Shown piece after piece: positions 2,572 through 64,000 of a stretch of DNA of 64,000 nucleotides. Where the stretch lies: positions 1-64,000 of the forward strand of contig CALKER010000011.1 of the NCBI GenBank assembly GCA_938084835.1. The letters run 5' to 3'. The first letter of the stretch is position 1; the number at the start of each line of letters is the position of its first letter. The translations under genes and the position numbers were made by a program. This stretch comes from an uncultured Thermoguttaceae bacterium. Lineage in GTDB: Bacteria > Planctomycetota > Planctomycetia > Pirellulales > Thermoguttaceae. Under the pieces are notes generated by a model. That model ran no database searches, was not told where the DNA came from, and was given only the letters and a program-made list of their open reading frames with translations.

Positions 2572-2812
2572 CTTCGCCTGTGGCCCGTCACCAGAGAGGT
2601 TCTTCTCCGAGTTGGGGGCACAAATCCCGCGGCGATAGACTTATCAGCAGTTGGCGAGAAAAATTTCGCATGTTGCCCCGGGGAAAATTATCCGCGTGGA
2701 GAAACCCCGGGGGAACTTACCGCGTGGCGATCATTGCCGGAACAGAGAATCATCCTCCCCCGAAGCCACTTGGTAGGATCGGGCAGGAATTTTTCATGTG
2801 CGGAGTTGGTGC

Positions 2813-45957: not shown

Positions 45958-48900
45958 TTAGTCCACAGAGGGAGTCCAAAAGCCGGTTAACTCCAAGGCG
46001 TAGTCAAACGGGTTTTGGGCCAGCTCTAAGCGGGCCCCAAATCGGCCCACGGCAACTACACGGGTTGGTCTCTCCAGCCAACAACTCGAGCGTGGCCCGA
46101 TGATTCCCACGACATTAGCAGCGGCCACAAGCCTATCTTTTGCAGAAGAGTCGTACACGATGCTCGTTATGCCTGCTTTTGGTGCGGCTTGGATGCGAAC
46201 CTGGCTGATGCCGGAAAACTGCCAATCACCTTGCGGACCAACAAGGCGCACCCACTCGGGGGAGAGCACAACGTGGCTGACCCACGACGGAGCGCGAACA
46301 AGCGCCTGATCGGCACCACCTTGTTGGGCGTAGATGCGCAGTACATCAAAACCCTTGGCCACCACAACCCCTCGCACAGTGACCAATTCCACCCAATTAT
46401 CGCCCAGGCGGAAAAGGTCATCACTGGGCGAGTCAAAAATGCGGATGATATCGCCGGAGCCAGCCGTGGCTGTCACGATGACCTGGGCGAAACCTTGTAC
46501 CCGCGTATACGCGCCGGGGGTCGTAAGGGTCACATATCCACTAGTGATAACCGCTGAGTCGGTCCCCGGTGAGTCATACAGTTTGGCAACGTCTGCACCG
46601 TAGGAAGATCGGGCTATGACCCAGCGAAATCCCTCAGCCCGTTGGAAATATCCGGGACCTCGCATGGCGGCATATCGTGGCGTGGATGTAAACGAGTCCT
46701 CACCCGGGCCATCTTGGAAATAGATGGCATCAGTGCCACCAACCGACGAGGTGGTTAAGATAGTGGCAAATCCCCGCACAGCGACCATCACCCGCTGGCC
46801 GTAAAGGGTGGCTTCCCTTGGGCGGAGGAAGATCCGGTCGTTGCCTGGGGTGTCGCCAAGTTGGGCTATAGTGCTCGGTCCAGCCCCCGCCCACACATCG
46901 ATTCGTTCGAATCCCTTGAGGTTGATCGCCACTTCTGCGGTAACAAACTGGGCCCCCACGTGTGTAAACACAAAACGATCGGATGGGCTATTTCCGTAGA
47001 TCCGGGCTGAGTCGGTCGGTCCCCCGGCAACAAGCGAGATGCTGGCCACGTGCTTTGCGGCGACCCAAAGCCCGGTGTGCCCGATCAGGGCCTCGCCATT
47101 GCGAAAAACGAAGGACGTAGCTCCCAAAGCGGAAGTCCAATAAAGTTGGTCCCGCCCTCCTTTTCCTACGATTTCAATCGATGTGGCAGCGCGCCTTGGC
47201 AACGTGTACTCCACTCCATTGATGGCAACATGCAGGTCTTGTCCCACCGCGATTTGAACGACATCATCTTTGGGAGAACCAAAGACCTGAACTTTTCCGT
47301 CAGAAAAGCTTAGAAGGTTGACCGCGCGGAGGGAAACGACTTGGCCCTGTCCTGTTAAGCGCATCAAGTACTCGCGCTGCGCAATGACTTCGGTATCTAA
47401 GCGGCAAGTGCCGAAGGGGGAATACGCGCGTGCCAGCCGCTGTCCGGAGGCATCGAAAAGATCGATCTGAATCGGCAAATTTTCAAGGGCCGAGGTGGCC
47501 TCCGCGGTGAAACTCCCCGAATGTGCCGCGCGGAAGCGCCACCAGGTTCCGCTGCCCGGCGCAGCAATTTGTTGCTCTTCGAGCCAGTGAAGAATGCCAA
47601 GGTTTTCGCCCCTTTCACCCTGGCCGATTGGTGCCAGGAGAAAGTTATATGAAGAGTCGGCCAGGTGTGGCTGTGGCAGGATGGGATAAGCTTCGCCAAT
47701 CGGCGCCACGACAAACCACCCGACAGGTGGCTCCACGCACAAAGCACCGGTGCTGGCGGCAACCTGCGGGAGGAAAAACACCCCATCACCATCTGTGAAG
47801 GTCGTCGGTTCGGCGTACCCCAAGGAAAGATTCCATCCATGAAGGATGCCGGAATCGCGAGTGGATACATCAACAATCTCCAAAACCCACACTCCTTGAG
47901 CTGGCTCACCCTCAAAGGCACGAAGTGCTTGGGCCGGGTGAATGTCGCCGCTAATGTGTCGCTGCTGGGGGGAAATGGTCCGCAGGGCATCGTCGCGAAA
48001 GGTAACATCGCGGAGTACGCCAGCTCCTAACGGGGGCCGGGAAAGAAGCTTTACACGCGTGCCAGAGGGACTAATCAACGAGATCTCTAAGTCGTGGAGA
48101 AACTGATGCTCAAGCGAAAGGGACACAAAAATCTGTGTTATTTGTCCTGGGGCATCCACTTCGACTGTGGCCCGGAGGGTACCCAGGTCGGGAATTGGCG
48201 TTGGTTGTCCCGACCAACGGTAAAGCGACGAGCCTTCGTTGAATGTGCGGTCATTGTTTGTGTCAACAAACACCCGCACGCCGGCGATACCCCCCGCGGT
48301 TGAGTCAACGGAGGCAGTCCCAGGGATGTCGGCCAGGACCCTTCCAGAGATGTGACCGGGTGTGCCAGAGGGGTCACGGGGCCCTATCTGAAGTGGTAAC
48401 TCAGGATCGCCGAGAAGAATCGTAGTAAAGTGAATCCATCGATAGACGCCCGTATCCCCCACGCGGAAAAGATTGTCAAGCTTGGAATCATGATGGGCCA
48501 GACCAAGGTGAACAAACTTTTCGTTAAACAAGGCATCGAAAAACTCGTAGGCGTAAAAATGGTTCCCCCCAGGGGTGGGTCCCGGAACATACCAGCCGAA
48601 TCGCGTGTTCATCACCGCGGCAACAGCACTTGCGGGAGCCACCACGTGGGCTTCTCCGATGGCAAGATCGTACAAGTCGAAAGCGCCTGAATAGCACCCC
48701 TGGGAGTAGAAAACATAAGGCATGGAGTTAGTTAACGATTGCACATTGGCCACGGTCAATCGGGCATTCCAGTGGGCACTTGCATGGCCCAAATGATGCA
48801 CCAGATGGGGAGACTGGTTGAGAAGCCCGCGCAGTTCTTCGCCGCTCCAGCGGCCGTCGCGGTCGTAACGCTCAATGGCAGTCCAATCCCCCGGGAGGGT

Positions 48901-50613
48901 TTCGCGACGAATCGCTTCTCCGGAGATGCTTCCATCGGTCCGAGAATCAAGCTCTTCCCCCAGCCACAGCACGGTGGTTCGCTGAGGATGGGCGTAGGAC
49001 TCGTAGCGAATGACTTTATCAACGAAATATACGGCTTCCGTCCAGGAACTTACAGGCGCACGGCCGACGAAGACCTCGGGCACGAGATCGATATCCCTTC
49101 TCCCGATGCCGTCAACAGGTTCTCCCCAGATGCCATTGCGATTTCCGTCCCATGGGCCATCTAGGCAGGCGTAGTAGAGATCTGTGGCAAGTGATGTGTC
49201 CACGATCGAACTAACACGGGCATAAACCCCGCGAGTAGGAATGATCTCCACATCGCCCCCCAGAAGAATCCAGCTTGTCCCCCAGTGGAGGTAAGCCTCG
49301 CTAATGAACTGCCGAATGCGGTCGGCCAAATCGCCGGATTCTGTGCCGGTATATCGGCTACCAATAAGCTCGATAGTGACGATGGTGGCAGAAAGGCCCC
49401 GGCTCTTTTTGTGGTCCACCAATCGCTCGAAAACCGCCTGTAGCTGCTCAGAGGTGATTACTACATATTCGAAATGGCCCGCCCACGGAAGCCTGGGGGA
49501 TTGCGCGGGGACGGTAGCTGTTACGTACGTGGTAATCGCAGCTGGGTTGTCCACATAAGATGCTATTAGACTGATGTCCTCGGGCAATAAGCGTAGCGTG
49601 TGAGGGAGGAGGTCCCGATTTTGACCGTCATTCTGTGATATGGCACCAGCAGTGGATGAAATCTGCGGGATTGTTGACGAACTGGCAGTAATCTGGAGGG
49701 TCATTTCCTCATGGTAAATCAGCGTTGCCCAGGTATCATCCCAGTGAACCGGAAACACCTGAATGGTGGCGAAGGTAAAACCGCGAAACGTATGAAGCTG
49801 ATACCGCACAGGAGTCAGAGACGTGAGGACGTCCGTGGGTAAACCGGTCCAACTCGCAGCTCCCTCGGTGGTTTGCGAGCCGACCACGGCCATTGGGGTC
49901 AGCACAGCCGTGGGCAGAACCGATAAAGGCTGGGCTTGCGAGGAAAAATGCACGGTGATTGTCAGGGAGTCACTGCGTGCCGGCAGGAGGAGCGTCGACA
50001 CCCGTACAGGAACGACGGGTTCGCCAGGCTGGAGCCATAGTGACTCGCTTGCGAGTGTCACAAACCCACCTTGTGGGGCTAAGTGGAAGGAGGGTAACCC
50101 CTGGAAGCGAAAGCTAAGCCGCGATACAAGGGCGTCGCCCTCAGTGCGGAAGTCGTCAACGGCGTCGGCGCCTCGCGGTCGCGACTGAACCTGCCAGCCG
50201 TCAGCCACCAGCGCGGAGGGCCAAGAATAATCTGCATGTGCGGGAAGCCTCTCAGCCGGCCAAAAATGTTGCCCCCCTTCCGCCAAAAGGCCGAAAAGGC
50301 CGTAACCCCCCGGACCAACCGAAAGGAAAAGGCGATCTTCGAGTTGTTCAACAAAGCGGGTGTGTTTCCGGCCCTTGAGCCGCCCATCCTGTTGCCGCCT
50401 GGTTCGAAGGGTCAACAGTCGCTTTTGCTTATTCCGAGGAGATTCCGCACGTTCTGTGGTTTTTGCACATGGCGGAAAAACAAGTGCCTGAAATCCTGTC
50501 ACTATTCCGCTGCAACGGTTTTGACTCCTGCTTCCCAGCCATTTCTGCAGAATTCTGCCGTGGCCACGGCCCTTGACTAGCGCCGTGGGCGCCGACAAGT
50601 GAGAGCGATCCAT
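45958..50613 (-). CDS. Secreted C25 (gingipain-like) cysteine peptidase with P domain and repeat tail
   Basis: 1551 residues; the ATG at 50613 has GAGG six bases upstream. The N-terminus is long and basic and ends in the LEPR-XLL-type motif EQLEDRLFLS (residues 91-98), typical of large exported planctomycete proteins. A gingipain propeptide-like region is followed by the C25 catalytic domain (about 380-720): catalytic His610 in VHHLGHASAHW and Cys640 in SQGCYSGAFD, 30 residues apart as in gingipains. A proprotein-convertase P domain follows (LRATVEVDAPGQITQIFVSL, HDLEISLISPSGTRV, GVWVLEIVDVS). The last ~450 residues are a repeat tail shared with the giant protein upstream, ending DYALELTGFW. 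Probably cell-surface bound. Confidence 0.85.
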   Translation of the reverse strand: MDRSHLSAPTALVKGRGHGRILQKWLGSRSQNRCSGIVTGFQALVFPPCAKTTERAESPRNKQKRLLTLRTRRQQDGRLKGRKHTRFVEQLEDRLFLSVGPGGYGLFGLLAEGGQHFWPAERLPAHADYSWPSALVADGWQVQSRPRGADAVDDFRTEGDALVSRLSFRFQGLPSFHLAPQGGFVTLASESLWLQPGEPVVPVRVSTLLLPARSDSLTITVHFSSQAQPLSVLPTAVLTPMAVVGSQTTEGAASWTGLPTDVLTSLTPVRYQLHTFRGFTFATIQVFPVHWDDTWATLIYHEEMTLQITASSSTIPQISSTAGAISQNDGQNRDLLPHTLRLLPEDISLIASYVDNPAAITTYVTATVPAQSPRLPWAGHFEYVVITSEQLQAVFERLVDHKKSRGLSATIVTIELIGSRYTGTESGDLADRIRQFISEAYLHWGTSWILLGGDVEIIPTRGVYARVSSIVDTSLATDLYYACLDGPWDGNRNGIWGEPVDGIGRRDIDLVPEVFVGRAPVSSWTEAVYFVDKVIRYESYAHPQRTTVLWLGEELDSRTDGSISGEAIRRETLPGDWTAIERYDRDGRWSGEELRGLLNQSPHLVHHLGHASAHWNARLTVANVQSLTNSMPYVFYSQGCYSGAFDLYDLAIGEAHVVAPASAVAAVMNTRFGWYVPGPTPGGNHFYAYEFFDALFNEKFVHLGLAHHDSKLDNLFRVGDTGVYRWIHFTTILLGDPELPLQIGPRDPSGTPGHISGRVLADIPGTASVDSTAGGIAGVRVFVDTNNDRTFNEGSSLYRWSGQPTPIPDLGTLRATVEVDAPGQITQIFVSLSLEHQFLHDLEISLISPSGTRVKLLSRPPLGAGVLRDVTFRDDALRTISPQQRHISGDIHPAQALRAFEGEPAQGVWVLEIVDVSTRDSGILHGWNLSLGYAEPTTFTDGDGVFFLPQVAASTGALCVEPPVGWFVVAPIGEAYPILPQPHLADSSYNFLLAPIGQGERGENLGILHWLEEQQIAAPGSGTWWRFRAAHSGSFTAEATSALENLPIQIDLFDASGQRLARAYSPFGTCRLDTEVIAQREYLMRLTGQGQVVSLRAVNLLSFSDGKVQVFGSPKDDVVQIAVGQDLHVAINGVEYTLPRRAATSIEIVGKGGRDQLYWTSALGATSFVFRNGEALIGHTGLWVAAKHVASISLVAGGPTDSARIYGNSPSDRFVFTHVGAQFVTAEVAINLKGFERIDVWAGAGPSTIAQLGDTPGNDRIFLRPREATLYGQRVMVAVRGFATILTTSSVGGTDAIYFQDGPGEDSFTSTPRYAAMRGPGYFQRAEGFRWVIARSSYGADVAKLYDSPGTDSAVITSGYVTLTTPGAYTRVQGFAQVIVTATAGSGDIIRIFDSPSDDLFRLGDNWVELVTVRGVVVAKGFDVLRIYAQQGGADQALVRAPSWVSHVVLSPEWVRLVGPQGDWQFSGISQVRIQAAPKAGITSIVYDSSAKDRLVAAANVVGIIGPRSSCWLERPTRVVAVGRFGARLELAQNPFDYALELTGFWTPSVD
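45961..47330 (-). repeat. C25 protein repeat tail (YDSP/GF..V units)
   Basis: This section encodes about seven ~50-60-residue units with the pattern GxDxAxxYDSPxxD, then a Y/T strand and GFxxVxA. Clear units contain AKLYDSPGTDS, IRIFDSPSDD and IYFQDGPGED. It opens with KVQVFGSPKDD and NGVEYTLP, which match VYFYGTAAPE and NGVEYRFP in the giant protein's tail. Confidence 0.7.
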
Positions 50614-51188: not shown

Positions 51189-54100
51189 TTAATCCCTCCA
51201 GGAGCCGAAAGTTTCCAATGCGAAATCGAGTGCTCCGATGATTTCCTTAGTGTCTACACCGGGATCACTTCCGTAGGCTTCCACCCTGTCGAAGTTGATA
51301 GCCCATAACTCGTAGTCAACAAGGCTATTGCTGACTTTAGCCCAATTGCCCTGGGCCTGGAGATGATCACCGGCCCAAGCCAGGGCCATATCGTACAGCT
51401 GGGCCAGATCGTACCCGGAAGTGGCATTGCCCACGACCTTACTGAAGCCCACAGCCTGGTTATCGTAGCCGGCTCCGTACATTCTCCCTTCGAAGGGCTT
51501 GGCCACGAAACGATCGTCGCCCAGCGAATCGTAAAAGATGGCGTGATCATTACCTCCGCGGGAGTAAGCGGTCACATAGCGGAAGCCCTCTACCTGGACC
51601 TGGTAGTTAATGCCCACCATTAAGGCGTAGGTGGGATAAGCGAGGAACGACTCCGCCTGGGCCGGATCGTCATACAAGCGACCGCGATCGTTGCCGCCGC
51701 GAGCAATTGCCTGAACATTCCGGAAACCGAAAACCCGGTGGTTAAACGTATCGCCGTAGTAAACGGCATATGTAGGAGTGGCCTCGAAACGATCGAACCG
51801 AGCCGGATTATCGTACAAAATGGCCGTGTCACTACCGCCTCTCGACTCAGCGGTTACATAGCGGAATCCCTGCAACTGGATGCGGTATCCGCTGCCGGCC
51901 AATTCTACATTACCCGGCTGAGCTACAAACACATCGACCCCTATCGGATTGTCATAGAGGGTCGCTCCGTCATTCCCGGTTGTGGCGTAGGCCACCACAT
52001 CGGCAAAGTCGCGGGCAAAGACGTAGAAGCCAGCACCGGAGATCCGGGCATAAGTCGGATCGGCTACCACCCAGTCGCGGGTGGCCGGATTGTCATAGAG
52101 GATGGCTTTGTCGCCGGATCCGTTTCCGTAGGCATAGGCCCAACGGAAGTTATCCGCCTGGATGAAGTAGCTTCCGCCATCCAACTGGACGGAAGTAGGC
52201 GTACCCACAAATGTTTCGGCCACGGCAGCGGAGCCGTAAAGCCGTACCACGTCGGCCCCTTCACCCGGATTACCGCGGATGTGGACCCGCGGGAAATTAT
52301 TGACGCGATTGACCACGGCTCCGGTGGTCATTTGCACATAGCTTGAGGTTCCCACTACCGTGTCCTTAACGCCGGGCGTTGCCGACAGGACCGCTTGGTC
52401 GTTGCCACCGCGGCCATTGACCGTTACGTTTTCCGCCTGGGTGACTACAACCAAGAAGTTTGCCCCTGTGAGCATCGCGAAGCCGGATCGCAATTCGACG
52501 GTCTCGGCACCGCTTGTTCCGTTGAGAATCGCCACGTCTTGCCCAGCGCCAGCGGCGAAGACGAAGGCATCTACCTCCGAAGCCGGGAATCTGTACTCCA
52601 CACCGTTGTACACAACCCGGTGTTGACCGCCGGGACTGGCGGTAGGTGTAAATTCGAACCTCTCTGGCGCCGCCGTGCCGTAGAAGTACACCGTGCGCCC
52701 TTGCCGCGCGAGTCCCGTAGGAGCTGAGGCCACAATCTGTACTTGATAATCTTCCACCTCACCATTGAGGGCCGACCCGAAGTAAAGGAGCCCGCCTGTG
52801 GTGCTGAAGCGGAATCGTGCAAATGTATTTCCTAATTCAGCCCAGCTGGGGACTGTGAAACTTAGCATGTTCACGCCGGGCCAGAGAGGTTGGCTGGTGA
52901 AAATCTGCTCACCGGCATCTACGACGCTGAGCGGGTCGGTAGGATTACCCCAGCGGCCATTTCGGTTAAAGTCGACCCAAGCGTCTAAATAGCCGGCCAC
53001 CGAGGCCCGTACGGCCACCTGGGCTACCTGACCCGGTATCAGCGGTGTGAGGAAGACCACACCGTCTTCGTCGGGCAGGTTGGTTTGGTCATCCCCCAAG
53101 GCATCAGCGGAGGCCAAGCCATCGCGCTCGCCGTCCACCTGCCAACCCAGATAGACAGTCGGATCAATCGCATGCCGCGCACCATCGTCGGCCAACAACG
53201 TACGGTAGGAAGCCGGGGCATCACCAAAATCCCACCCAAGCCCACGGTCATCATCATTGAGGATCCACACCCGCACCTCGGAGGGATTAAGCACCACCGA
53301 GCCAGTTCCCAAAGCAGGCACTTCCGCGGCGGAAATGCGGACCCAGAAGTATTCATCCGACTCTACCCGATCGTCGCCAACGATGGTCACGCCAACCGGT
53401 GTCACAATCCGTGGTGACTCATACTGGGCAACGCAAATCTCGTAATCCACACCGTCCCAGTTCCGCCACGTGACGTAGTCCCCCGAAATTAGGGGATACC
53501 AATCGGTCGCCGGATGTCGCGAGATATTTTGGGCCACACCCGCGGTCGACAAGTCGTATACAAACACCTCGAAGTTGCTACCAATTCGGGCATGCCACAC
53601 CACCCGATGACCATCGATCTTCGGGAACTGGTTGTCATATGGGTTGGCAGAAATGTTGGTTGGGGGCAGGCCGAGCTCCAGCTCCTCCAAATTCATGTAG
53701 TAGATTTGCCACGTGGTGCCCACCCTAGTTTGCCATACCACGTGATTACCCGACAAAGCGGGAGACACATCGGCCACAGTGTTATTGGTGAGCTGGCGGG
53801 AGACTCCGGTGGCAAGATTGTGAACCCAAATTTCGTAATCATTTCCGTCAAACTGTTCCCATACCACCCACTGACCATGAATCCGCGGGGCGCGATCAGC
53901 AGTGGTGTTATTGGTCAGTCGACGGGTGCCGGCGATCGCATCCCAGATGTAGATTTCCTCGTCGAACCCATCCCAACCGGACCATACCACATGCGGGCCA
54001 AAGGTCTGCGGTGCGAAGTCGCCGAAGGGATTACCCGAGATATTTCGCGGCGGCTGGGTGACTCCCCACGTGCTGTTCACCCACGCCTTGTAATTGAAGA

Positions 54101-57100
54101 CAAAGACTTCGCTGTTGGAAGCTGTGACCTGACCCACCCACACCACGTAGGTGTCATCAATTTGCGGCGAGGATTCGTTGAAGGTGTTGTTCGTAAGCTG
54201 AATGGCAGGAGAAATAAACCCACGTCCACGCTCGTACACACGGAGGAATACTTCTGTATCCGTTTGTCCGGGCGTTTGGTCTTGACCGATCCACACCAAA
54301 TAAGCCCGGTCTCCATCTTCGTACACGGTGGGGAATCGGTCATCCACGGAGTTATTCGTAACCCGATGGACCGAATCGGTCTTGAGGTCGTACAGCCAAA
54401 TTTCCCAATCGCCGCCTTCAGCCGGCGGGTCGAGAACTTGATAAACCAGGATGTGTCCAGACAGGCCGTAGTCGTAGTCCCCGCGGTCGTTACTGGTAAG
54501 GACCCGCACCGGCCATCTGCTCTGAGGTGGCAGGTCCGCCGTCAACTGCAAGGCCTGCGCTATGGGAAGATAGTCGTTGTCCACGGCAGTGGCAGTGCCG
54601 TCGGCGGTTAAAAGCACAAGGTCGATGGGCGCGCCGAAGGATCGCTCCCACACCAAATTCAGTTCTACCTCGGTGAATTGACCGTTTTGGCCTTCCAGGA
54701 CGCGGACATCGTTCCATGAGAGGATTGGGCGGAGGAAATTGCCGAAATCGATACGGCTTATCACCGCCCCAGCATCGAGGTTCACCGTGTACGAGCCATC
54801 GGGATTGACGCGGGCCGGTCCACCCGGCAAGAAGCTCGTCAGTCGATCCACGGTTAAGGTGCGACCACGGAGGATTACCTCAGTGTCCGCCGCTACTGCC
54901 CAGATGTTCAGACCGAGAGCGGCGGCCTGGGTTTGCACGGCTGTGGCAATAGCGGCAGCAACTTCTGCCGGTGTGCGACCTGCTACCGGGATCAGCACAT
55001 GGCCCCGGCCCGGGTAAGAGGAAGCACCGTCCCAATCGAACTCGAAGGTCACCTGGCCCCGGCCATCTCCGACCGAGAAAATCGAACCTTCGGGGATGGT
55101 GCTACCGGCAAGTGCGGTGAAGCGAACCGTCCACGGATAATCCTGGGGGAAGAGGATGACGGGATCACCAGTGATGACAACCTCATCCCCTTCTGCTCCG
55201 GCCTGGAGAATCAACCCCCGGGTGCCGCGAGCCGTGTTCACCGCTGTGGTGATCGCTTCGGCCACTTGGTCCGCTGTGGTCAGGCCGGCTATATTCACCG
55301 GGATCACCCCCGGATCGCTCAGCAACCCATTACGATCGAATTCAAAGGTGTGAACTCGCCGGCCGTCAAAGATCCTCAATTGGTCGCCGTCCCGCAGCTC
55401 GCTGGGCGGAACCGCCACGACCCGAAGATCACCCGAAGCCAGATAACCCACGGCACCCCACCGCGGGTTGGTTTGTATCCACTCTTGCCACTCTGGTGAT
55501 GTCAGATCCTCTCGGATGACATAGGTGCCGGGGGGCAAGGGGCCAAAGCGGAATCGGCCGGATTCGTCCTCCAAGGTGCCGCGCAAATCGCGCTGCGCCA
55601 CCACCGTCCATTCACCGGGATCCCGCACGCCATTGTTATTAGCGTCAATGTACACCACGCCTCCCGGAATTCCGTATTCCGGTCCGTGTGGTCGGCCAGT
55701 GTTGGGGTCGATTCTTACGCCGAGGACCTGCTGAGCCACAAGCTCATCCAATCCGGTTTGGCTGGTTGGTCGGAAAATGCGGGCATACGTGAAGTTATTG
55801 CCGGCGTTGAACCCGATCTCCGCTCCCGGGTCCCCGTAGCCGCCGGTCCGCACCCAAGTGCCGGTCTCGGGATCGAAATAATCCCCGGTCGTCCACTGCA
55901 GGTTCCAGTAGACGAATCCCACCACATCGCCAAGGGGGTCATCTTCGATGTAAACGCCGAAGGTATTTCGCCGTGATAGAAGTGGCAAGTTGAGCGGATC
56001 GTATCGATTGTAAAAGCCCACATCAACCCACGTCACCTGCACAAACGGATTGCCTGTGAGCGGGTTGGTGCCGCGGGAAAGTTCCACACGCCCACCACCC
56101 AGTCGCAAGTCAACATCGGCCCAGAAGGGCGCAATCATCGGAATGCTTTCTGGGAATCCTGCCAAATCGAAGGCGCTTACCGGCGAGCCAAACGAGATCG
56201 CTCCGTTTTCACTCACGTAAAACTGCGTGTAGATGGCTCCGTAATAAGCGAACTCGAATCCCAGGTCGATCGGTCCAACTGTGGCGTTAAACCCGCCGGT
56301 TAGGATGGGGGTGCCGGAGCCTGGAGCTGTGGGCTGGATAATGGGCTGGAAGACATTCGGCCACCATTGCCAGATTCCGTCGGCGTTGGCATCGTTGAAC
56401 TTGGTACCCTGGATCACACCCTGAAGGCTTTCCACAAACAGGGCGTGGTCCTCAACTTCGCCGTCTGGGGCGCGGCCTACCGGGGCCAGTACCGCCTGGC
56501 GATCACTCGAATACCGCAACCGTAGGAAGGTGACACCTTCGGCCGCCGAGGCGGGTACATGCACATCGAAAACAAACGGCGCCGAATCGTCCGCGATGTA
56601 AACACCTTGGACGACATGCTCGCGGACATACTGGCCGGTGAGCGGATCGAGGTAATCGCTGAAGACGCCGTCACCATTAAAGTCAATCCACGCACTGAGG
56701 TATCCGGTCCCAGTGACGGCCACTTCGAATCGCCCAATCTCTCCGCGGTAGAGAATGCCCGGACGGAACTGGCCGGCCACCAGGGTGCCGTAGCTTAAAA
56801 GCCCATCTTCATCCTGTTCTCCGGTGAAGTCATCTCCCACAGCCGCCTGATCCACCAGAGCGTCCGGCTCGGCATCGCCCGGCGCGTAACCTAAATACAC
56901 ACCTGTGGGGACCAGCAAATGTCGCGGGCCGTCATCCGCCTTCAACGTGCCGTAACTAGCCGGAGCATCACCAAAATCGAGGATGGGTGCCCGGACTTCA
57001 ACCCGGTGGTCCTCCACCTCTCCATTCGGATCCGGCCCGGCAGGATCTGGATTCCCTCCGTAGGGGAGCAAGTAACGAACATTGCTGCTAAAGCGCAGCC

Positions 57101-60100
57101 GCAGGAAAGTCTCGCCCAAAGGCATATCCTCGGGCAACGGGGCAAGCTCAGTTAATTCGTGGAGCCAATACAGCCCGGGTGAAGCAATCCACACGCCGCT
57201 GGCCAATTGTTCACCTGGATCCTCCCAATCGCCGTCTTGATTGATGTCGATCCAGGCATTGAGGTAGCCCGGGGTTGCGGCAAAAAGTTGGATTAGCGGC
57301 TTAAAGCCGGGGCTAACAAACCACAGCCGCATACCGTTTTCGTCATCGAGCCAATGTTCGTCGTCCCCTAAAGCCTGATCGTGCGGTAGCCCGTCGATGT
57401 ACCAGTCAACGCCGACGAGTTGGCCTGTCTCAGCATCCGGGAAGGCCAGATACGGATTGTTCTTAGGCCACACCACGTGGTAGGCACCGCCGGCATCACG
57501 AGTGACCGGATACCTGGCCGGGGCATCGCCGTAGTCTCGGTAGTAGTCAACAATCGTGACCTCGTAGTCTTCCACTTCGCCGTCGGTAGCAAGGCCCAGG
57601 TAGTTGGGCGATCCGCCCACAGGTAACTGAGAACCTGTCAGACGGAAGCGGGCCCAGGTCTTACCCAATTCGGCAGCCCGTGGTACGTTAAAGACCAGAT
57701 AGCCGGTCTCAAAGTCGAAATCATTCCAGCCGGCCTTCACGGGCACATTAGTGAAGACGTATTCGGAGCCTTCCGGCCACACATCGTCCCAGTCGCCATC
57801 TCGGTTAAAGTCGATCCAGGCATTGAGATAGCCAACAGTGCCGTCGGGCTGCACGGGCCAGTCAGCGGGAACACTGACGTAGACCCGAACACCGTGCCGC
57901 TCCAATGGCTCGGTGGGGTCGCGCTCAACGCGGATTTCGCCCCAATACTGGAAGAACACGCCATCATCGAAGGTATCGACGCCGCGCGCGTTAAGCTCTT
58001 CGTCCACAGCCCAACCGAGGGCGAAGCCTGGTACCACAATGTGACGCGCTCCATCGTTTTCCCGGCGTGTGGGATAACGATCGCTCGGGGCATCGCCATA
58101 GTCCCGCGGCTCGACCAGAAGGAGCACCTGATGATCTTCCACCTCTCCATTAGGCGGCGGGCCGTTAGGATCAGGGTTGCCACCGTACGGTGTCAAGTAC
58201 TGCACATTGCTGCTAAAGCGTAGCCGCATGTAACTTGTTCCGGGAGAAAGATCTTCCCGAAGAACAAGGACTTCCGGCCGCAAATGAAGCTGATGTTCGC
58301 CGGGCTCAAGCCACAGTCCCTGCACTATGTGCTCGCCGGCATCGTCCCAGTCTCCGTCGCGGTTGAGATCAATCCACATATTGAGCCACCCGCCGGTGAC
58401 AGCGTTGACGCTCATGATCGGTCGCGCCCCGGCCGTTAACGCCTCGATCCGCACGCCGTTTTCGTCATCGGTGCCGGGTAGATCAGGCCAACCACCTAGA
58501 TCGTCCCCTAAAGCTTGGGGATGTGGCTGACCATCAAGCTCCCAATCCACCGGGATAATTCGCCCAGTCACTGGATCCGGATAAGCAAGATGGGGATTGT
58601 CGACCGGCCATACGACGTGGTAAGCCCCATTTTCTGCCTCGAGGGTGCGATACGGGGCCGGGGCGTCGCCCCAGTCGCGGTAGTATCCCACCAGCTCTAC
58701 CGGGTAGTCTTCCACCTCGCCGTCCAGAAGCTCCATGGCGAAGCTTACGTCGCTGCTGGCGGTAATGGGGTAGCTACTTAAGCGGAAGCGGGCCCAGCTC
58801 GGCCCCAACGCCGCATCGTAAGGTACCGCAAAGACCAAATAGCCGGTGCCGAAGTCGTACCGATTCCATCCCGCCCGCACCGGTACGTTGACAAATACCT
58901 GCTCCTGTGGATCACTCCAGGCACCATTGCGGTTAAAGTCGATCCAAGCATTCAAATACCCAACAGTGCCGTCGGGCTGTACCGACCATCCCGCAGGCAC
59001 GCTAACATAGACCGACACCCCGTGACGTTCCTGTGGCCGAGCAGGGTTACTCTCCACCCGGATCTGCCCGCCATATTGGAACACTATGCCGTCATCCCCA
59101 TCGTCGACTGTCAGGGCATCCTGCTCCTCGGTGATGGACGCTCCTAAATGGAAGCCCGCAACCATTAAGTGGCGAGCCCCATCGCTGGCCAGCCGGGAGG
59201 GATAGCTCGGATCTGGGGCATCCCCAAAGTCAAGCGGCCAGCGCTCAAGCCGTACCCAGTGATCTTCCACTTCCCCATTGGGATCCTCTCCCGGCGAAGA
59301 TGGATTGCCACCATAGGACAAGAGATAGCGCACGTTGCTGCTAAAGCGCACGCGTAGGAAGGTGTCACCTTCGCTGAGGGTCATCGGCAGGATGCCCACA
59401 TCAGCCAATTCGTAGAGCCGATGTTCACCCGGCTCCAACCATAGCCCCCGAACCAAGTGTTCCCCGGGATCATCCCAGTCCCCGTCCCTGTTAAGATCCA
59501 CCCAGAGATTAAGCCAACCTGCGCCCACAGCATACACACTGATCAGCGGCCGCATGCCTGCTACTAAGATTGGCCGGCCATCGGGAGTTTGCAGCACCGC
59601 CCGCACGCCATTTTCGTCGGCAGCCCAGCCACCCAAATCATCACCCCGTGCTTGTGGATGCGGCTGACCGTCCACCTCCCAGTCGGGAGCGACCACAATT
59701 CCCGTAACGGGGTCGGGAAAAGCTAAGTGGGGATTGTTTTCCGGCCAAATCACGTGGTAAGCACCATTCTGCGATTCGACCGTGCGGTAAGGTGCCGGCG
59801 CATCGCCCCAATCCCGATAGTAAGGCACCAATTTCACCAGGTAGTCTTCCACTTCGCCGTCCGGGGCTTCGCCAAGGTAACCGGCCACAGGGGGTAGCGT
59901 TACGCTCGATAGCCGGAACCGGCTCCACGTTTCGCCAAAGGCGGCACTGTGGGGCACATTAAAGTACAAGTTATTCCAGCCGGCTTTCACCGGAACGTTC
60001 TGGAAGATTTGCTCGCCTGGGTCGTCCCAATCGCCATCGCGAGTGAAGTCGATCCAAGCGTTTAAATAGCCCACATTCTCATTCGCATCGACCGGCCATC

Positions 60101-63100
60101 CTTCCGGTGTGCTGACGTAGACGCGTACCAGATATTGCTCGGCAGGTCGGGCCGGATTTGTTTCCACCCGAATCTCGTTCCCGTACTGGAAGACGACCCC
60201 ATCGTCGAATTCATCTTCCGCGGGAGCATTGCGATCCCGGGTGACACCCCAACCCAGGTGGAAGCCGTCCACAATTACGTGGCGAGCTCCGTTGCTTTGC
60301 AGCCGCGAAGGATAGGATGGATCCGGCGCATCGCCATAATCTACAGGTACCAATTCCACGGGAACCCGATAGTCTTCCACTTCCCCGTTGGGATCGTCGC
60401 CACCGCTGATGGGATTGGCGCCGGTTGGGCCAAGACCCTGGACGTTGCTACTGATTCTCAGCCGTACATACGTCGCACCGACAGGCATATCCTCCGGCAA
60501 CAGCCCGAGGACGCCGGGCAGCTCATGAAGCCGATGCTCGCCCTCATTCAACCACAAGTCGCGAACTACGTGATCCACGTCATCGGCGAAGCTTCCATCC
60601 TGATAAACATCAATCCACACGTTGAGGTACCCGCCGCCGACCACATAGACGGTAATGCGTGGCACACGACTGGGGTTAAGTGTCTCAATAAAGGCTCCGT
60701 TTTCATCGGCGCGGCGGCCGTCGAGCCAGCCGTAAATGCTATCGGTGTCATCGCCTAAAGCCTCCGGATCGGGCTGGCCGTCGAGCTCCCAATCGGGCCC
60801 GACGAAGATGTACTGACCCGTGTTCGGATCGACCAGGTATTCCCCGGTATCCGGATCGCGGAGAGGAAATGCCAAATGGGGATTACCCACTGGCCACACG
60901 ACATGATAAGCGCCGTTGTCGGCCCGGAGTGTTCCGTACGAGGCCGGCGCATCGCCCCAGTCGCGGTAGTACCGTACCAGCTCCACCTGGTAATCCTCCA
61001 CCTCACCGTCATCGGCAACGCCGGTGAAGCTGAGGGCATTCTCCGGCGTGAAGCGATAACTCGTCAGGCGGAAGCGGGCCCAGCTGCTCCCGTACTCGGC
61101 CTCCCGCGGTACACTGAACACCAGGTAGCCACTGTCAAAGTCAAACTGGTTCCACCCAGCCTTTACCGGGATATTCTGCAAGATATACTCCGAGCCGGTG
61201 TCCCAGCTATCCTCCCAGTCGCCATCGCGGTTGAAGTCGATCCACGCATTCAAATATCCCACCGTTCCATCGGGAGCTGTGGGCCAACCGCTTGGCACGC
61301 TGACATACACCCGGACACCGTGGCGCTCCACCGGTTGATTGGGATCTTTCTCTACGCGGATTTCCCCACCAAACTGGAAGATTACACCATCATCGAAGGT
61401 GTCTTCCTCACGTGGGGCAAGCTCGCGGGAAATACCGGCTCCGAGATGGAAGCCATCCACAATTAAATGCCGAGCTCCATTGTTGACAAGCCGCGACGGA
61501 TATGGCAGATCCGGCGCATCACCGTAGTCCAGCACATCGATGCTCACCGTGAAGTAGCAATCACCGAAGACGGGGTGAGCCACGGGCCGGTTCGGCTGCA
61601 GAATATTACCGGCCAGGTCTCGGATCATGGTCCGATCCAAAGCAATGGTGTAGCGGTAGCCCGGCTCCCACAGCCCCGGCGCAGGATACAAAATGATCCG
61701 ATCATTAGTTACATCGTAACTGAACAAATAGTCGGCACCCACCGCAAGTGGTGTCTGGCGGTCATCGCGATAAACTTGGACGGCCTGCGGGACCACCGTG
61801 GCATCATCGATGCCGATTCCCACATCATACAAGCTGATAACAAACTCCGTCACCCGCACATGGGCCAGGGCCACCTCGTGGGGACTCCGGGCACGGTCGG
61901 CAGGACCGTTATCTACCGGTACCGTGATGGCTGCCGTTGGACCAAAGAAGTCCACCCGGTCCACCGCTCCACGATCCTTGAAGACATTGGCGCCCATACC
62001 GGCTGGCGGTGCTACCCACGGATCGTCCTGCCGCAATTGGCCAAATAAGTCCAGACTTGGCGCTAAAATCGGTGAGGGAGGAATTCCGATCGGCTGAAGC
62101 ACCGCGCTAAAGTAGCCGGACCGCTCCTCCAAACTGTCGATGGCACTGTCGATAATCCGAGAACCGGCGGCCGGATAGAAATTGTTTCGCTCGGGAGCCA
62201 CAAACAGCGGCTCAGTCGGCCCAAGGAGCAGAGCAAACGACCCCGTAGTTGTGCCACTAGCATTTTGGGTATTGCGGGCAAAAGCGTTGCCACCCAGCAC
62301 GGTGCTCGCCGAAGTTGAGTGGACCAAAACACCTGTCTGCCAGCCAGCAATGACATTGTTCAAAAGCGTGGGCGTAGCATTGGGACCAACTTGAATACCC
62401 GTTCCGGTGGCACTCTGACCTCGTAGGACATTGCCCACCACGGTGTTGTTAACAATTCGCCCGAAAGGAATAGCACCCAGGGGCTGCGCTGTGTCGCCGC
62501 CGAAGTAGATTCCACCCTGGCCACTGTAGGCCACAATGTTGTTGACCAAAGTCACCCCGGGCACCCACATCGAACCGGGAGTATTTGTTGGATAAGCGGC
62601 GTTCATCCACCGGCCGGAGCCCGGATGCGGCCAATTTCCGCCGGCATCTCTTGCCGCAGGCTCCACACGGATTCCCCAATCGCGCGAATACAGCACCTGC
62701 GTGCTGTCGATGATGAAATACCCTTTTTCCCGGAGCTGATTTTTATCCCCAATAAGCGGGTGATTGCCTTGTTTCGGGTTGACATAGGTCACGCCGGCCG
62801 GCGGTGAGGGTACGAAGTACGTCGTAGATGGCAGACCAATGACCTCTTGGGCTTTGTCCGAAAGGTCCACCCGGCCCGGAATGGAGATAGCTGCTGTTAC
62901 GTTCAGTTTTCCATCGGTGTTGGCTCTGTTAATCGCGTCGCGAATGAGGACGGCGATCTGGCTGGCAAGCATGCCAAATTCATAGGTAATCTGGTAAAAC
63001 TCCGGCGGCGCCGTTTCCCCAGTTAATGCGTTGATAAACATGAAATCGACCGCATTACCGTCGATGTCCGTTACACGGAAGGTGCTGCGATGGTTAATCG

Positions 63101-64000
63101 TATTACCGGCCGGAGCTTCGATCCGAAGATAGCGCGTTCCCACAGCCTCGACCGAGCCATAAATAATTTGCGAAATGGCAAAGGCCGGCCGAACTTGTGG
63201 AGGTGGATTCTGCTCCCCACCTAAGATGCCGCCCACGTACACCGCACCCCACAGATCAACGATATCCGAGACGCTTCGCCGCAGGGCCTGAACGTTCAAC
63301 CGGCCTTCGTTGGCCGCCTGATTTATGGCACTCTGCACTTTGCTTGCCAGCACAGCGGCCGACTCGTACCGCGAGAAGAAAATGGGAATGGCCTCCCCCG
63401 TAGCTCCACGCAGATCGTTATCAAGGAAAACAAACTCCTGCCGGCGGACACCGTCGTCGATCCAGAATCGATCCCCGTGACCAAGCTCGCTGGCCGGCGG
63501 AATGCGGATGCTAATCTCCTGAACAAACCGATCATTGGTGTCCACCTGCGGAGCAAGCCGCAGCACAGTGTACGGCGCGCTCGGTGGTCCGACCAAAGTC
63601 CCGAATTCATGGCCACGCCGGATTTCCAGCTGGTAACTTCCAGTTACCACAATGTTCTCATCCAACCGCGGTTCGCGCAGGAAGTCAAAACCGGTGACTC
63701 CGGTCGGGGCGTTGGTCACAAGTTCGCCACGCTCAGCAAAGCCAATGACGATGTCATCAATGTACCACCCTTCAAAGGCATTATTTTGGCCGCGGCGGAA
63801 ATTCCAAAAGCGGTTTTGGTTTCGCCCTGTGCCATAGGACTTATTGGTGGTATCGCCTTCTAAGGTGCTGGCATATCGGAAAGGCCCTGGGTTTGTCACC
63901 TCCACATCGTAAACGCGGATGAGAGCCTCCGCCCGACTTGCGCCCGTATTGTTCGGACTCGGGCTACTCGAGAGGAAACGCTCGTCCAATTTCCACGTGG
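51189..64000 (-). CDS. Giant modular surface protein with tandem GEVED domains (5' end outside window)
   Basis: At least 4270 residues; the frame is open to base 64000, so the N-terminus is missing and the TTG at 63989 is an internal leucine. From the N-terminal side: a FEGWYIDDIVIGF jelly-roll end; two ~75-residue modules with a D-G...FVF/FMF core; a parallel beta-helix (62000-62800; repeated NNIVAYSGQGG, NNTVVGN); an SbsA/Big_5-like Ig domain; nine GEVED domains (56440-61540); a NIDO-like domain inside an SdrD_B-like one; two more FEFD modules; a Calx-beta domain holding an eight-repeat propeller; a tenth GEVED domain; and a YDNP repeat tail ending DFALETFGSW. No catalytic domain is seen in this part. 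It is probably a cell-surface or cell-wall structural or adhesive protein. An intrinsic terminator follows. Confidence 0.88.
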   Translation of the reverse strand, partial: TWKLDERFLSSSPSPNNTGASRAEALIRVYDVEVTNPGPFRYASTLEGDTTNKSYGTGRNQNRFWNFRRGQNNAFEGWYIDDIVIGFAERGELVTNAPTGVTGFDFLREPRLDENIVVTGSYQLEIRRGHEFGTLVGPPSAPYTVLRLAPQVDTNDRFVQEISIRIPPASELGHGDRFWIDDGVRRQEFVFLDNDLRGATGEAIPIFFSRYESAAVLASKVQSAINQAANEGRLNVQALRRSVSDIVDLWGAVYVGGILGGEQNPPPQVRPAFAISQIIYGSVEAVGTRYLRIEAPAGNTINHRSTFRVTDIDGNAVDFMFINALTGETAPPEFYQITYEFGMLASQIAVLIRDAINRANTDGKLNVTAAISIPGRVDLSDKAQEVIGLPSTTYFVPSPPAGVTYVNPKQGNHPLIGDKNQLREKGYFIIDSTQVLYSRDWGIRVEPAARDAGGNWPHPGSGRWMNAAYPTNTPGSMWVPGVTLVNNIVAYSGQGGIYFGGDTAQPLGAIPFGRIVNNTVVGNVLRGQSATGTGIQVGPNATPTLLNNVIAGWQTGVLVHSTSASTVLGGNAFARNTQNASGTTTGSFALLLGPTEPLFVAPERNNFYPAAGSRIIDSAIDSLEERSGYFSAVLQPIGIPPSPILAPSLDLFGQLRQDDPWVAPPAGMGANVFKDRGAVDRVDFFGPTAAITVPVDNGPADRARSPHEVALAHVRVTEFVISLYDVGIGIDDATVVPQAVQVYRDDRQTPLAVGADYLFSYDVTNDRIILYPAPGLWEPGYRYTIALDRTMIRDLAGNILQPNRPVAHPVFGDCYFTVSIDVLDYGDAPDLPYPSRLVNNGARHLIVDGFHLGAGISRELAPREEDTFDDGVIFQFGGEIRVEKDPNQPVERHGVRVYVSVPSGWPTAPDGTVGYLNAWIDFNRDGDWEDSWDTGSEYILQNIPVKAGWNQFDFDSGYLVFSVPREAEYGSSWARFRLTSYRFTPENALSFTGVADDGEVEDYQVELVRYYRDWGDAPASYGTLRADNGAYHVVWPVGNPHLAFPLRDPDTGEYLVDPNTGQYIFVGPDWELDGQPDPEALGDDTDSIYGWLDGRRADENGAFIETLNPSRVPRITVYVVGGGYLNVWIDVYQDGSFADDVDHVVRDLWLNEGEHRLHELPGVLGLLPEDMPVGATYVRLRISSNVQGLGPTGANPISGGDDPNGEVEDYRVPVELVPVDYGDAPDPSYPSRLQSNGARHVIVDGFHLGWGVTRDRNAPAEDEFDDGVVFQYGNEIRVETNPARPAEQYLVRVYVSTPEGWPVDANENVGYLNAWIDFTRDGDWDDPGEQIFQNVPVKAGWNNLYFNVPHSAAFGETWSRFRLSSVTLPPVAGYLGEAPDGEVEDYLVKLVPYYRDWGDAPAPYRTVESQNGAYHVIWPENNPHLAFPDPVTGIVVAPDWEVDGQPHPQARGDDLGGWAADENGVRAVLQTPDGRPILVAGMRPLISVYAVGAGWLNLWVDLNRDGDWDDPGEHLVRGLWLEPGEHRLYELADVGILPMTLSEGDTFLRVRFSSNVRYLLSYGGNPSSPGEDPNGEVEDHWVRLERWPLDFGDAPDPSYPSRLASDGARHLMVAGFHLGASITEEQDALTVDDGDDGIVFQYGGQIRVESNPARPQERHGVSVYVSVPAGWSVQPDGTVGYLNAWIDFNRNGAWSDPQEQVFVNVPVRAGWNRYDFGTGYLVFAVPYDAALGPSWARFRLSSYPITASSDVSFAMELLDGEVEDYPVELVGYYRDWGDAPAPYRTLEAENGAYHVVWPVDNPHLAYPDPVTGRIIPVDWELDGQPHPQALGDDLGGWPDLPGTDDENGVRIEALTAGARPIMSVNAVTGGWLNMWIDLNRDGDWDDAGEHIVQGLWLEPGEHQLHLRPEVLVLREDLSPGTSYMRLRFSSNVQYLTPYGGNPDPNGPPPNGEVEDHQVLLLVEPRDYGDAPSDRYPTRRENDGARHIVVPGFALGWAVDEELNARGVDTFDDGVFFQYWGEIRVERDPTEPLERHGVRVYVSVPADWPVQPDGTVGYLNAWIDFNRDGDWDDVWPEGSEYVFTNVPVKAGWNDFDFETGYLVFNVPRAAELGKTWARFRLTGSQLPVGGSPNYLGLATDGEVEDYEVTIVDYYRDYGDAPARYPVTRDAGGAYHVVWPKNNPYLAFPDAETGQLVGVDWYIDGLPHDQALGDDEHWLDDENGMRLWFVSPGFKPLIQLFAATPGYLNAWIDINQDGDWEDPGEQLASGVWIASPGLYWLHELTELAPLPEDMPLGETFLRLRFSSNVRYLLPYGGNPDPAGPDPNGEVEDHRVEVRAPILDFGDAPASYGTLKADDGPRHLLVPTGVYLGYAPGDAEPDALVDQAAVGDDFTGEQDEDGLLSYGTLVAGQFRPGILYRGEIGRFEVAVTGTGYLSAWIDFNGDGVFSDYLDPLTGQYVREHVVQGVYIADDSAPFVFDVHVPASAAEGVTFLRLRYSSDRQAVLAPVGRAPDGEVEDHALFVESLQGVIQGTKFNDANADGIWQWWPNVFQPIIQPTAPGSGTPILTGGFNATVGPIDLGFEFAYYGAIYTQFYVSENGAISFGSPVSAFDLAGFPESIPMIAPFWADVDLRLGGGRVELSRGTNPLTGNPFVQVTWVDVGFYNRYDPLNLPLLSRRNTFGVYIEDDPLGDVVGFVYWNLQWTTGDYFDPETGTWVRTGGYGDPGAEIGFNAGNNFTYARIFRPTSQTGLDELVAQQVLGVRIDPNTGRPHGPEYGIPGGVVYIDANNNGVRDPGEWTVVAQRDLRGTLEDESGRFRFGPLPPGTYVIREDLTSPEWQEWIQTNPRWGAVGYLASGDLRVVAVPPSELRDGDQLRIFDGRRVHTFEFDRNGLLSDPGVIPVNIAGLTTADQVAEAITTAVNTARGTRGLILQAGAEGDEVVITGDPVILFPQDYPWTVRFTALAGSTIPEGSIFSVGDGRGQVTFEFDWDGASSYPGRGHVLIPVAGRTPAEVAAAIATAVQTQAAALGLNIWAVAADTEVILRGRTLTVDRLTSFLPGGPARVNPDGSYTVNLDAGAVISRIDFGNFLRPILSWNDVRVLEGQNGQFTEVELNLVWERSFGAPIDLVLLTADGTATAVDNDYLPIAQALQLTADLPPQSRWPVRVLTSNDRGDYDYGLSGHILVYQVLDPPAEGGDWEIWLYDLKTDSVHRVTNNSVDDRFPTVYEDGDRAYLVWIGQDQTPGQTDTEVFLRVYERGRGFISPAIQLTNNTFNESSPQIDDTYVVWVGQVTASNSEVFVFNYKAWVNSTWGVTQPPRNISGNPFGDFAPQTFGPHVVWSGWDGFDEEIYIWDAIAGTRRLTNNTTADRAPRIHGQWVVWEQFDGNDYEIWVHNLATGVSRQLTNNTVADVSPALSGNHVVWQTRVGTTWQIYYMNLEELELGLPPTNISANPYDNQFPKIDGHRVVWHARIGSNFEVFVYDLSTAGVAQNISRHPATDWYPLISGDYVTWRNWDGVDYEICVAQYESPRIVTPVGVTIVGDDRVESDEYFWVRISAAEVPALGTGSVVLNPSEVRVWILNDDDRGLGWDFGDAPASYRTLLADDGARHAIDPTVYLGWQVDGERDGLASADALGDDQTNLPDEDGVVFLTPLIPGQVAQVAVRASVAGYLDAWVDFNRNGRWGNPTDPLSVVDAGEQIFTSQPLWPGVNMLSFTVPSWAELGNTFARFRFSTTGGLLYFGSALNGEVEDYQVQIVASAPTGLARQGRTVYFYGTAAPERFEFTPTASPGGQHRVVYNGVEYRFPASEVDAFVFAAGAGQDVAILNGTSGAETVELRSGFAMLTGANFLVVVTQAENVTVNGRGGNDQAVLSATPGVKDTVVGTSSYVQMTTGAVVNRVNNFPRVHIRGNPGEGADVVRLYGSAAVAETFVGTPTSVQLDGGSYFIQADNFRWAYAYGNGSGDKAILYDNPATRDWVVADPTYARISGAGFYVFARDFADVVAYATTGNDGATLYDNPIGVDVFVAQPGNVELAGSGYRIQLQGFRYVTAESRGGSDTAILYDNPARFDRFEATPTYAVYYGDTFNHRVFGFRNVQAIARGGNDRGRLYDDPAQAESFLAYPTYALMVGINYQVQVEGFRYVTAYSRGGNDHAIFYDSLGDDRFVAKPFEGRMYGAGYDNQAVGFSKVVGNATSGYDLAQLYDMALAWAGDHLQAQGNWAKVSNSLVDYELWAINFDRVEAYGSDPGVDTKEIIGALDFALETFGSWRD
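51200..52720 (-). repeat. Giant protein repeat tail (YDNP units)
   Basis: It encodes 8-9 units of about 45-60 residues: G-x-D-x-A-x-L-YDNP-xx-D-x-F-x-A-x-PTYA, then GxGYxxxxxGFRxVxA. Examples are AILYDNPARFDRFEATPTYA and GRLYDDPAQAESFLAYPTYA. The final unit (WAKVSNSLVDYELWAINFDR) and end motif differ. Confidence 0.85.
53415..54500 (-). repeat. Eight TolB/WD40-like propeller repeats inside a Calx-beta domain
   Basis: Eight ~40-50-residue repeats with the pattern LTNN-xxxDxxPxIxGxxVVW-xxxDGxDxEIxVxxLxTG. Examples: RAPRIHGQWVVWEQFDGNDY, DVSPALSGNHVVWQTRVG and QFPKIDGHRVVWHARIGSNF. The flanks (TADGTATAVDNDYLP before; GVTIVGDDRVESDEYFWVRI and VRVWILNDDD after) are the two halves of one Calx-beta domain. 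Confidence 0.75.
54740..55390 (-). repeat. Two FEFD modules in the giant protein
   Basis: Two copies of a ~75-residue unit: DGDQLRIFDGRRVHTFEFDR, then TADQVAEAITTAVN and a strand EVVITG; and VGDGRGQVTFEFDWDG, then TPAEVAAAIATAVQ and TEVILRG. Two more diverged copies lie at about 62880-63530 (VTDIDGNAVDFMFIN and IDDGVRRQEFVFLDN). Confidence 0.6.
56440..61540 (-). repeat. Nine tandem GEVED domains, alternating A and B types
   Basis: Nine domains, each ending in GEVED(Y/H). Type A opens DYGDAPDPSYPSRL..NGARH and has FDDGV.FQ and VGYLNAWIDFNRDGDW. Type B opens YYRDWGDAPAPYRTL...NGAYHVVWP, with a DGQPHPQALGDD segment and LWLEPGEH. The order is A-B-A-B-A-B-A-B and then a ninth domain of B-like opening (DFGDAPASYGTL). 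Each A+B pair is about 1.1-1.2 kb of DNA. Confidence 0.85.

What the first reader, a model, noticed from the sequence alone, without database searches (positions are those of the whole stretch)
53260..54725. Calx-beta domain split by a complete eight-repeat beta-propeller
The N-terminal half of a Calx-beta domain (VRVLEGQNGQFTEVELNL ... TADGTATAVDNDYLP) runs directly into eight TolB-like repeats. After the eighth repeat the typical second half resumes (GVTIVGDDRVESDEYFWVRI ... VRVWILNDDD). In ordinary Calx-beta domains these halves are joined by a short loop. So the propeller seems to be inserted in a surface loop. An insertion of this kind would place a recognition domain on a stalk built of GEVED and Calx-beta units.
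Basis: partly seen in the sequence, partly recalled or inferred. Interest (0 to 1): 0.65.

Follow-up and report, generated by a model that had tools for sequence, protein, structure and literature searches.

The report
Propeller inserted within a Calx-beta domain
In a giant surface-type protein of a Thermogutta-like planctomycete, an eight-bladed propeller is built into one loop of a single Calx-beta domain, an arrangement conserved across its bacterial family, where the propeller sometimes carries a further enzyme-like module.

Summary
Window 53247-54737 (minus strand) lies in one uninterrupted ORF of about 7,285 residues and encodes Calx-beta strands A-D (residues 1-66), an eight-bladed propeller (72-441) and Calx-beta strands E-G (442-497). 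The two halves match complementary parts of the Pfam Calx-beta profile (35-68, 71-119); joined they pass its cut-off. No other Calx-beta half exists in the whole protein.

The same three-part order spans a single match in 22 of 119 genomes of the same family (15 of 40 genera) and in none outside that family in two wider samples. In 37 ordinary Calx-beta domains examined the same halves abut. AlphaFold2 gives mean pLDDT 91; removing only the C-half drops the N-half from 82-93 to 45-63 and leaves the propeller unchanged. So the flanks behave as one domain.

The 'stalk of Calx-beta units' is wrong: there is one Calx-beta; the repeats are GEVED. In one relative the propeller entry carries a subtilisin-like or vWA-like module. 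Function (surface recognition on a calcium-stabilised mount) is inferred. New variant of a known kind.

The parts
54540..54737 (-). Calx-beta N-half: strands A-D, residues 1-66 of the 497-residue unit; includes E15, DGTA (46-49) and D55-Y56
   Evidence: Pfam Calx-beta profile 35-68 on this half alone; strands 5-7, 11-14, 21-31, 38-46, 60-65 in the model; invariant columns
54525..54539 (-). Entry linker at the D-E hairpin (residues 67-71)
   Evidence: Lies between strand D (60-65) and the first residue aligned to solved propellers (72); maps to the PG/ETQ turn of the NCX1 Calx-beta domains
53415..54524 (-). Eight-bladed beta-propeller, residues 72-441; N-terminal strand 77-79 closes blade 8
   Evidence: TIGR04275 110.4 bits; model pLDDT mostly 86-97; pdb_via range 72-441 aligned to propellers such as Fbw7/Cdc4 and the eight-bladed design Tako8
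53247..53414 (-). Calx-beta C-half: strands E-G, residues 442-497; GDDRVESDEYF and the closing NDDD
   Evidence: Pfam Calx-beta profile 71-119; strands 443-453, 462-473, 482-484, 487-493; needed for the N-half to be predicted as folded
52719..53246 (-). GEVED unit directly downstream (DFGDAPASY ... GEVEDYQVQIV)
   Evidence: Sequence; GEVED PF20009 with 10 stretches in the window part of the ORF; a GEVED-like start follows in 24 of 25 split copies (23 by pattern, L074 by eye, L064 is the exception)
51189..64000 (-). Window part of the giant ORF (4,269 codons); continues to ATG at contig position 73043, about 7,285 residues in all

Best explanation
A single Calx-beta domain is used as a two-ended mount for an eight-bladed propeller. 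The chain forms strands A-D, leaves at the D-E hairpin, makes a closed propeller whose first strand closes its last blade so that entry and exit lie together, and returns to form strands E-G. Shown by sequence and prediction: the split, the insertion site, mutual dependence of the halves in the model, conservation across a bacterial family. Inferred: the Calx-beta binds calcium through residues from both halves, so calcium would lock the mount; the propeller projects from the pole opposite that site, beside the joint to the preceding domain; it presents a binding face from a GEVED-rich secreted or surface giant protein.
For: Complementary profile halves and a joined score over the cut-off. Joined flanks of a homologue align across the junction to the Calx-beta domains of NCX1, E = 3.9e-8 (3us9). 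Same order at full length in 22 of 119 family genomes. Same halves abut in all 37 ordinary domains examined, against 338-821 residues in 25 split copies. Model mean pLDDT 91.2, pTM 0.85; control without the C-half: N-half pLDDT falls from 82-93 to 45-63, strands C and D shrink, propeller unchanged. Distances of N-half, propeller and C-half correlate (r 0.72-0.82, 0 of 5000 permutations). The 26 split domains form one side of a branch against 37 ordinary ones, SH-aLRT 96. Calcium-type residues from both halves invariant in 9 of 9: E15, D55, E459, D461, N494, D495, D496, compared with NCX1 ligands.
Against: Model coordinates and PAE were not available, so packing of the two halves was not read directly. 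The flanks rest on only 4 full-length rows in the prediction alignment. The solved-structure comparison tested only residues 72-441. The unjoined window is just under the Pfam cut-off (26.5 against 27). D446 of NCX1 is a glycine here, so calcium sites would be fewer. One relative (L063) has no detectable C-half by the split profile. No functional or localisation data.
Confidence: 0.85

Rival explanations
1. Two independent, degenerate half-domains or linkers happen to flank a propeller and do not form one fold.
For: Each half alone is a weak Pfam match (14.3 and 18.3 bits); packing was not seen in coordinates.
Against: Deleting the C-half collapses only the N-half in the model. The halves join seamlessly in ordinary domains, co-vary in distance, and no other partner half exists in the whole ORF.
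Confidence: 0.05
2. The halves do form one Calx-beta fold, but between two molecules or copies (domain swapping), so that the propeller is a hinge or dimer arm rather than a loop insert.
For: Not excluded by a single-chain prediction. Entry and exit of the propeller are close, which suits either closure.
Against: AlphaFold2 builds both halves with confidence in one chain. The window protein has a single split domain, as do most relatives in the stretches read.
Confidence: 0.07
3. Assembly or binning chimera that pasted a propeller gene into a Calx-beta gene.
For: The window belongs to a draft assembly of 25 contigs.
Against: The frame is open throughout and the same junctions recur in 22 of 119 family genomes, one of them listed as a single contig (G105).
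Confidence: 0.01
4. The architecture is as described, but the propeller is structural (a spacer or a polymerisation contact of a surface layer) and does not bind an outside ligand.
For: TIGR04275 is named for Methanosarcina propellers (name; their surface role is recalled). The insert length is well kept (338-399 residues in 21 of 25 copies).
Against: In one relative the propeller entry carries a subtilisin-like or vWA-like module, which suits display of active parts.
Confidence: 0.35

Closest known systems
Calx-beta domain (PF03160), as in NCX1 CBD1/CBD2
   Same: Strand order, DGTA..DY and GD..E.DE.F motifs and the acidic closing motif; homologue halves align across the junction to NCX1
   Different: The D-E hairpin holds a propeller of about 370 residues; the first acidic residue of the EF loop (D446 in NCX1) is glycine
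TIGR04275 beta-propeller repeat; propeller-only genes of other genomes (L084, L086-L088, L090, L091, L093)
   Same: Repeat sequence, 29-35% identity to the window over the aligned part
   Different: Those matches show propeller repeats only, with no Calx-beta half detected in their ORFs
TolB and S9 peptidase propellers
   Same: Propeller fold, top Foldseek hits
   Different: TolB model far under its cut-off (31 of 343 bits); eight blades here, TolB six (recalled)
ADGRV1/VLGR1 (35 Calx-beta motifs and seven EAR repeats, PMC9262510, passages read)
   Same: Giant adhesion protein that combines Calx-beta and a repeat domain usually modelled as a propeller (the last point recalled)
   Different: Many Calx-beta domains; in the passages read, EAR repeat 1 (residue 3234) lies after a CalX-beta 22 position (3153). 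Whether it interrupts a Calx-beta was not tested

Membership tests
Calx-beta (PF03160) | Sequence covers the family profile over its curated cut-off | tested here: met
   Met when the flanks are joined: 30.9 bits, cut-off 27, profile 38-119. Unjoined the window gives 26.5, just under; unmodified homologues L024 and L026 give 40.5 and 35.5, L022 24.7.
Calx-beta (PF03160) | One seven-strand sandwich formed by the whole domain | tested here: inconclusive
Calx-beta (PF03160) | Acidic calcium-binding positions in CD and EF loops and at the C-terminus | tested here: met
   D55, E459, D461, N494, D495, D496 invariant in 9 of 9 rows, D455 in 8 of 9; placed by alignment to NCX1. Sequence only; D446 of NCX1 is glycine here.
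Calx-beta (PF03160) | Calcium binding | not testable with these tools
   Needs titration.
TIGR04275 beta-propeller repeat | Score over the curated cut-off | tested here: met
   110.4 bits in P0001 and 89.2 in the 4,269-residue stretch, cut-off 85.
TIGR04275 beta-propeller repeat | Closed propeller fold | tested here: met
   Predicted model, eight blades; residues 72-441 align to solved propellers, Z 25.6 (7z8b_F, 323 aligned, 3.4 A) and 21.4 for eight-bladed Tako8 (312 aligned, 4.3 A).
TolB (TIGR02800) | Score over the curated cut-off | tested here: not met
   31 bits against 343.15.
GEVED-repeat proteins | GEVED domains over cut-off | tested here: met
   PF20009, 387.6 bits, 10 stretches, cut-off 24.4.

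The most novel reading that the evidence does not exclude
The D-E hairpin of this Calx-beta domain is an evolutionary socket: a whole propeller was plugged in once in the ancestor of a planctomycete family, and the propeller's closing loop then became a second socket that accepts catalytic or adhesive modules (a subtilisin-like protease, a vWA-like domain). Giant planctomycete surface proteins would thus evolve by nesting domains in loops rather than by adding them end to end; a vWA-like module in a beta-helix loop of a relative would be a separate case of the same habit.
Probability: 0.5. Interest if true: 0.6.

Novelty: new variant of a known kind. Interest (0 to 1): 0.5.

Why it matters
Calx-beta domains are normally beads on a string. 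Here one has been turned into a calcium-dependent-looking holder for another complete domain, and the arrangement has been kept across at least 15 genera. It gives a natural example of nested domain insertion (protease or vWA module in propeller in Calx-beta), a tractable 497-residue construct to test how insertion and calcium affect folding, and a handle on the uncharacterised giant proteins of planctomycetes.

Tried and rejected
Search of the own genome with Pfam PF03160 gave nothing, and the tool's control genomes gave nothing either, so it says nothing. The first genome-contig scan with the single protein found no relatives; the second, with a closer alignment, gave 23 loci, of which L081, L082 and L083 carry the full unit and 20 show propeller repeats without a detected Calx-beta half. 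PDB sequence search with P0001 gave nothing; with A3 only weak hits (TolB among them; the PrfA rows look like chance). Foldseek and pdb_via lists are filled by propellers; no Calx-beta chain appears in the rows shown, but those lists did not test the flanks. Two independent Calx-beta domains: rejected. Assembly chimera: rejected. Membership of TolB: rejected. Literature: searches for Calx-beta with propeller and planctomycete (1 paper, listing only), with insertion and beta-propeller (0), with domain insertion (0), GEVED (2, listing only), giant protein with planctomycetes (4, listing only), surface-layer propeller (2, listing only), general insertion terms (1, listing only), Thermoguttaceae (listing only), NCX1 ligands and ADGRV1. 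No description of this insertion was seen in these searches of one open-licence library; passages were read in PMC3386913, PMC9262510 and PMC12922695.
Full report
WHAT IS THERE. The region is in one long minus-strand ORF. It runs off the window edge; with the adjoining contig stretch it is about 7,299 codons between stops, with a plausible ATG at contig position 73043 giving about 7,285 residues. Pfam finds GEVED (10 stretches, 387.6 bits), NIDO (60.5 bits), weak beta-helix matches and a weak Calx-beta match in the window part, and a weak matrixin and a PPC match further upstream. Within this region NCBIfam finds the propeller repeat TIGR04275 well over its cut-off (110.4 of 85 bits) and TolB far under its own (31 of 343). 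The unit discussed is 497 residues at 54737-53247 (P0002).

THE SPLIT. Given alone, the N-half (72 residues) matches Pfam Calx-beta positions 35-68 and the C-half (58 residues) positions 71-119; joined they match 38-119 at 30.9 bits, over the cut-off of 27. Unjoined, the window scores 25.6-26.5, just under; three unmodified homologues score 24.7, 35.5 and 40.5. Profiles of the two halves find exactly one significant N-half and one C-half in the whole giant protein, at the two sides of the propeller.

HOMOLOGUES. In 40 genomes (own included), the window unit found full or near-full matches in eight further genomes of the same family. With a nine-row alignment (A1; 32-50% identity to the window) 119 held genomes of the family were searched: 36 have some match, and 22 have a single match spanning from model position 5 or lower to 462 or higher of 483, in 15 of 40 genera (my count from the table). 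In 396 genomes of the order, which include family members, and 392 of the phylum (E <= 1e-30 only), no full-length match lay outside the family; matches listed there outside the family were of the Calx-beta N-half or of propeller repeats. The one search list is cut at weak E-values. One genome of the same genus (G002) has no match. The GenBank title of the G001 contig is 'uncultured Thermogutta sp.' (family Thermoguttaceae, order Pirellulales), so the window is from that genus or very near.

THE EMPTY SITE. Profiles of N-half, propeller and C-half were run on 30 fetched loci. Of 65 N-halves found, 25 are followed by propeller and then C-half with 338-821 residues between the projected ends; 37 are followed directly by a C-half with projected ends overlapping by 4-16 residues; 3 have no C-half (L062 and L079, where the matching region runs to a contig end, and L063, where the whole-unit match does reach position 483). 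The 37 ordinary domains come from five loci (24 of them from L031, outside the family); the other four loci belong to the same family. So ordinary Calx-beta domains of close relatives are the same sequence without the propeller. In 25 split copies the preceding residues end in an FG[N/D/S/A]-type motif in all by eye (22 by the pattern used), and a GEVED-like start follows in 24 (23 by pattern, L074 by eye; L064 is the exception).

ORIGIN. A tree of 26 split and 37 ordinary domains (124 columns, few for so many rows; quick method) places all split ones on one side of a branch, SH-aLRT 96. Pairwise distances of N-half and C-half, N-half and propeller, C-half and propeller correlate at r = 0.72, 0.82 and 0.73, with 0 of 5000 permutations as high (25 copies, window not included, rows not independent). 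This fits one insertion followed by joint inheritance.

STRUCTURE. AlphaFold2 with 11 rows (4 full-length, 7 propeller only) gives mean pLDDT 91.2 and pTM 0.85. Strands 5-65 precede and strands 443-493 follow the propeller, in the order of a Calx-beta domain. Residues 72-441 match solved propellers (best Z 25.6; eight-bladed design Tako8 Z 21.4). Eight sets of strands can be listed, the last closed by strand 77-79 from the N-terminal side. As a control the same rows without the C-half were predicted: the first seven blocks of ten residues fall from 82, 88, 91, 86, 93, 88, 84 to 61, 57, 63, 58, 61, 45, 53, strand C (38-46) shrinks to 38-40 and strand D (60-65) to 63-65, while the propeller keeps its confidence and strands. 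The N-half therefore needs the C-half to be predicted as folded. Coordinates and PAE were not available, so contacts were not read.

HOW IT MOST LIKELY WORKS. NCX1 ligands are E385, D421, D446, D447, I449, E451 and D498-D500 (passages of PMC3386913). By alignment, D421 is D55 here (N-half), D447, E451 and position 454 are D455, E459 and E462, and D498-D500 are N494-D496 (C-half); E15 may stand for E385 (one residue off in the alignment, so tentative); D446 is a glycine. E15, D55, E459, D461, N494, D495 and D496 are invariant in 9 of 9 rows and D455 in 8 of 9. A calcium site would thus be built from both halves and would lock the mount. In this topology the D-E hairpin lies at the pole opposite the CD and EF loops (inference), so the propeller would stand beside the joint with the preceding domain, away from the calcium site. 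That the protein is secreted or surface-bound and that the propeller binds a partner are inferences from domain content.

NESTED MODULES. In genome G045 one ORF fragment holds four propeller-plus-C-half sets, three with their N-half in the fetched stretch. In one, the stretch between N-half and propeller blade 1 is a subtilase with a fervidolysin-type prodomain (Peptidase_S8 169.8 bits; D, H and S motifs visible, motifs recalled). In another, and in a second contig of G045, it is a vWA-like stretch with a DTSGT motif, whose Pfam match is weak (16.2 bits, cut-off 23.8, E 0.013). Of 119 family genomes only G045 shows the S8 module in this place (query 1-506 covered only there at E <= 1e-60). A relative of the vWA module (52% identity) lies in the giant ORF of G012, inside a beta-helix loop that is uninterrupted in the window protein. 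These rest on draft assemblies.

VERDICT. Domain-in-domain insertion is a known kind of event; this host-guest pair, conserved over a family with further nesting, was not seen in the literature searches listed under Tried and rejected.

Noticed in passing
L061 (G045:C99:14000-28596, minus-strand ORF residues 906-1635 and 2293-3238); L062: Further modules nested at the propeller entry: a vWA-like stretch and a subtilisin-like protease with prodomain.
   Followed up: partly
L026 (G012:C8:40000-58075), ORF residues about 2170-2390: A vWA-like module inserted in a loop of the beta-helix of the giant protein of G012; the window protein has that beta-helix uninterrupted.
   Followed up: partly
45958-50613, minus strand: Downstream gene: peptidase C25 (gingipain-type, 164.4 bits) with a P-domain (53.1 bits); its C-terminal repeats are similar to the tail of the giant protein (25-28% identity, E 2e-19).
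   Followed up: partly
L001:11518-11550, minus strand (contig 71517-71549, outside the window): HEILHNLGFGH, a metzincin-type zinc motif (motif recalled) near the N-terminus of the giant protein; weak matrixin match 20.9 bits, cut-off 24.
   Followed up: no
near 55052 in the window; contig 67856 and 69755 outside it: A recurring unit of about 70 residues (DG..F...FEFD ... A..I..AI) without a Pfam name, one copy shortly upstream of the split domain.
   Followed up: no
genome G002 (same genus as the window): No match to the split unit although the assembly is listed as 95% complete; loss or an assembly gap.
   Followed up: no
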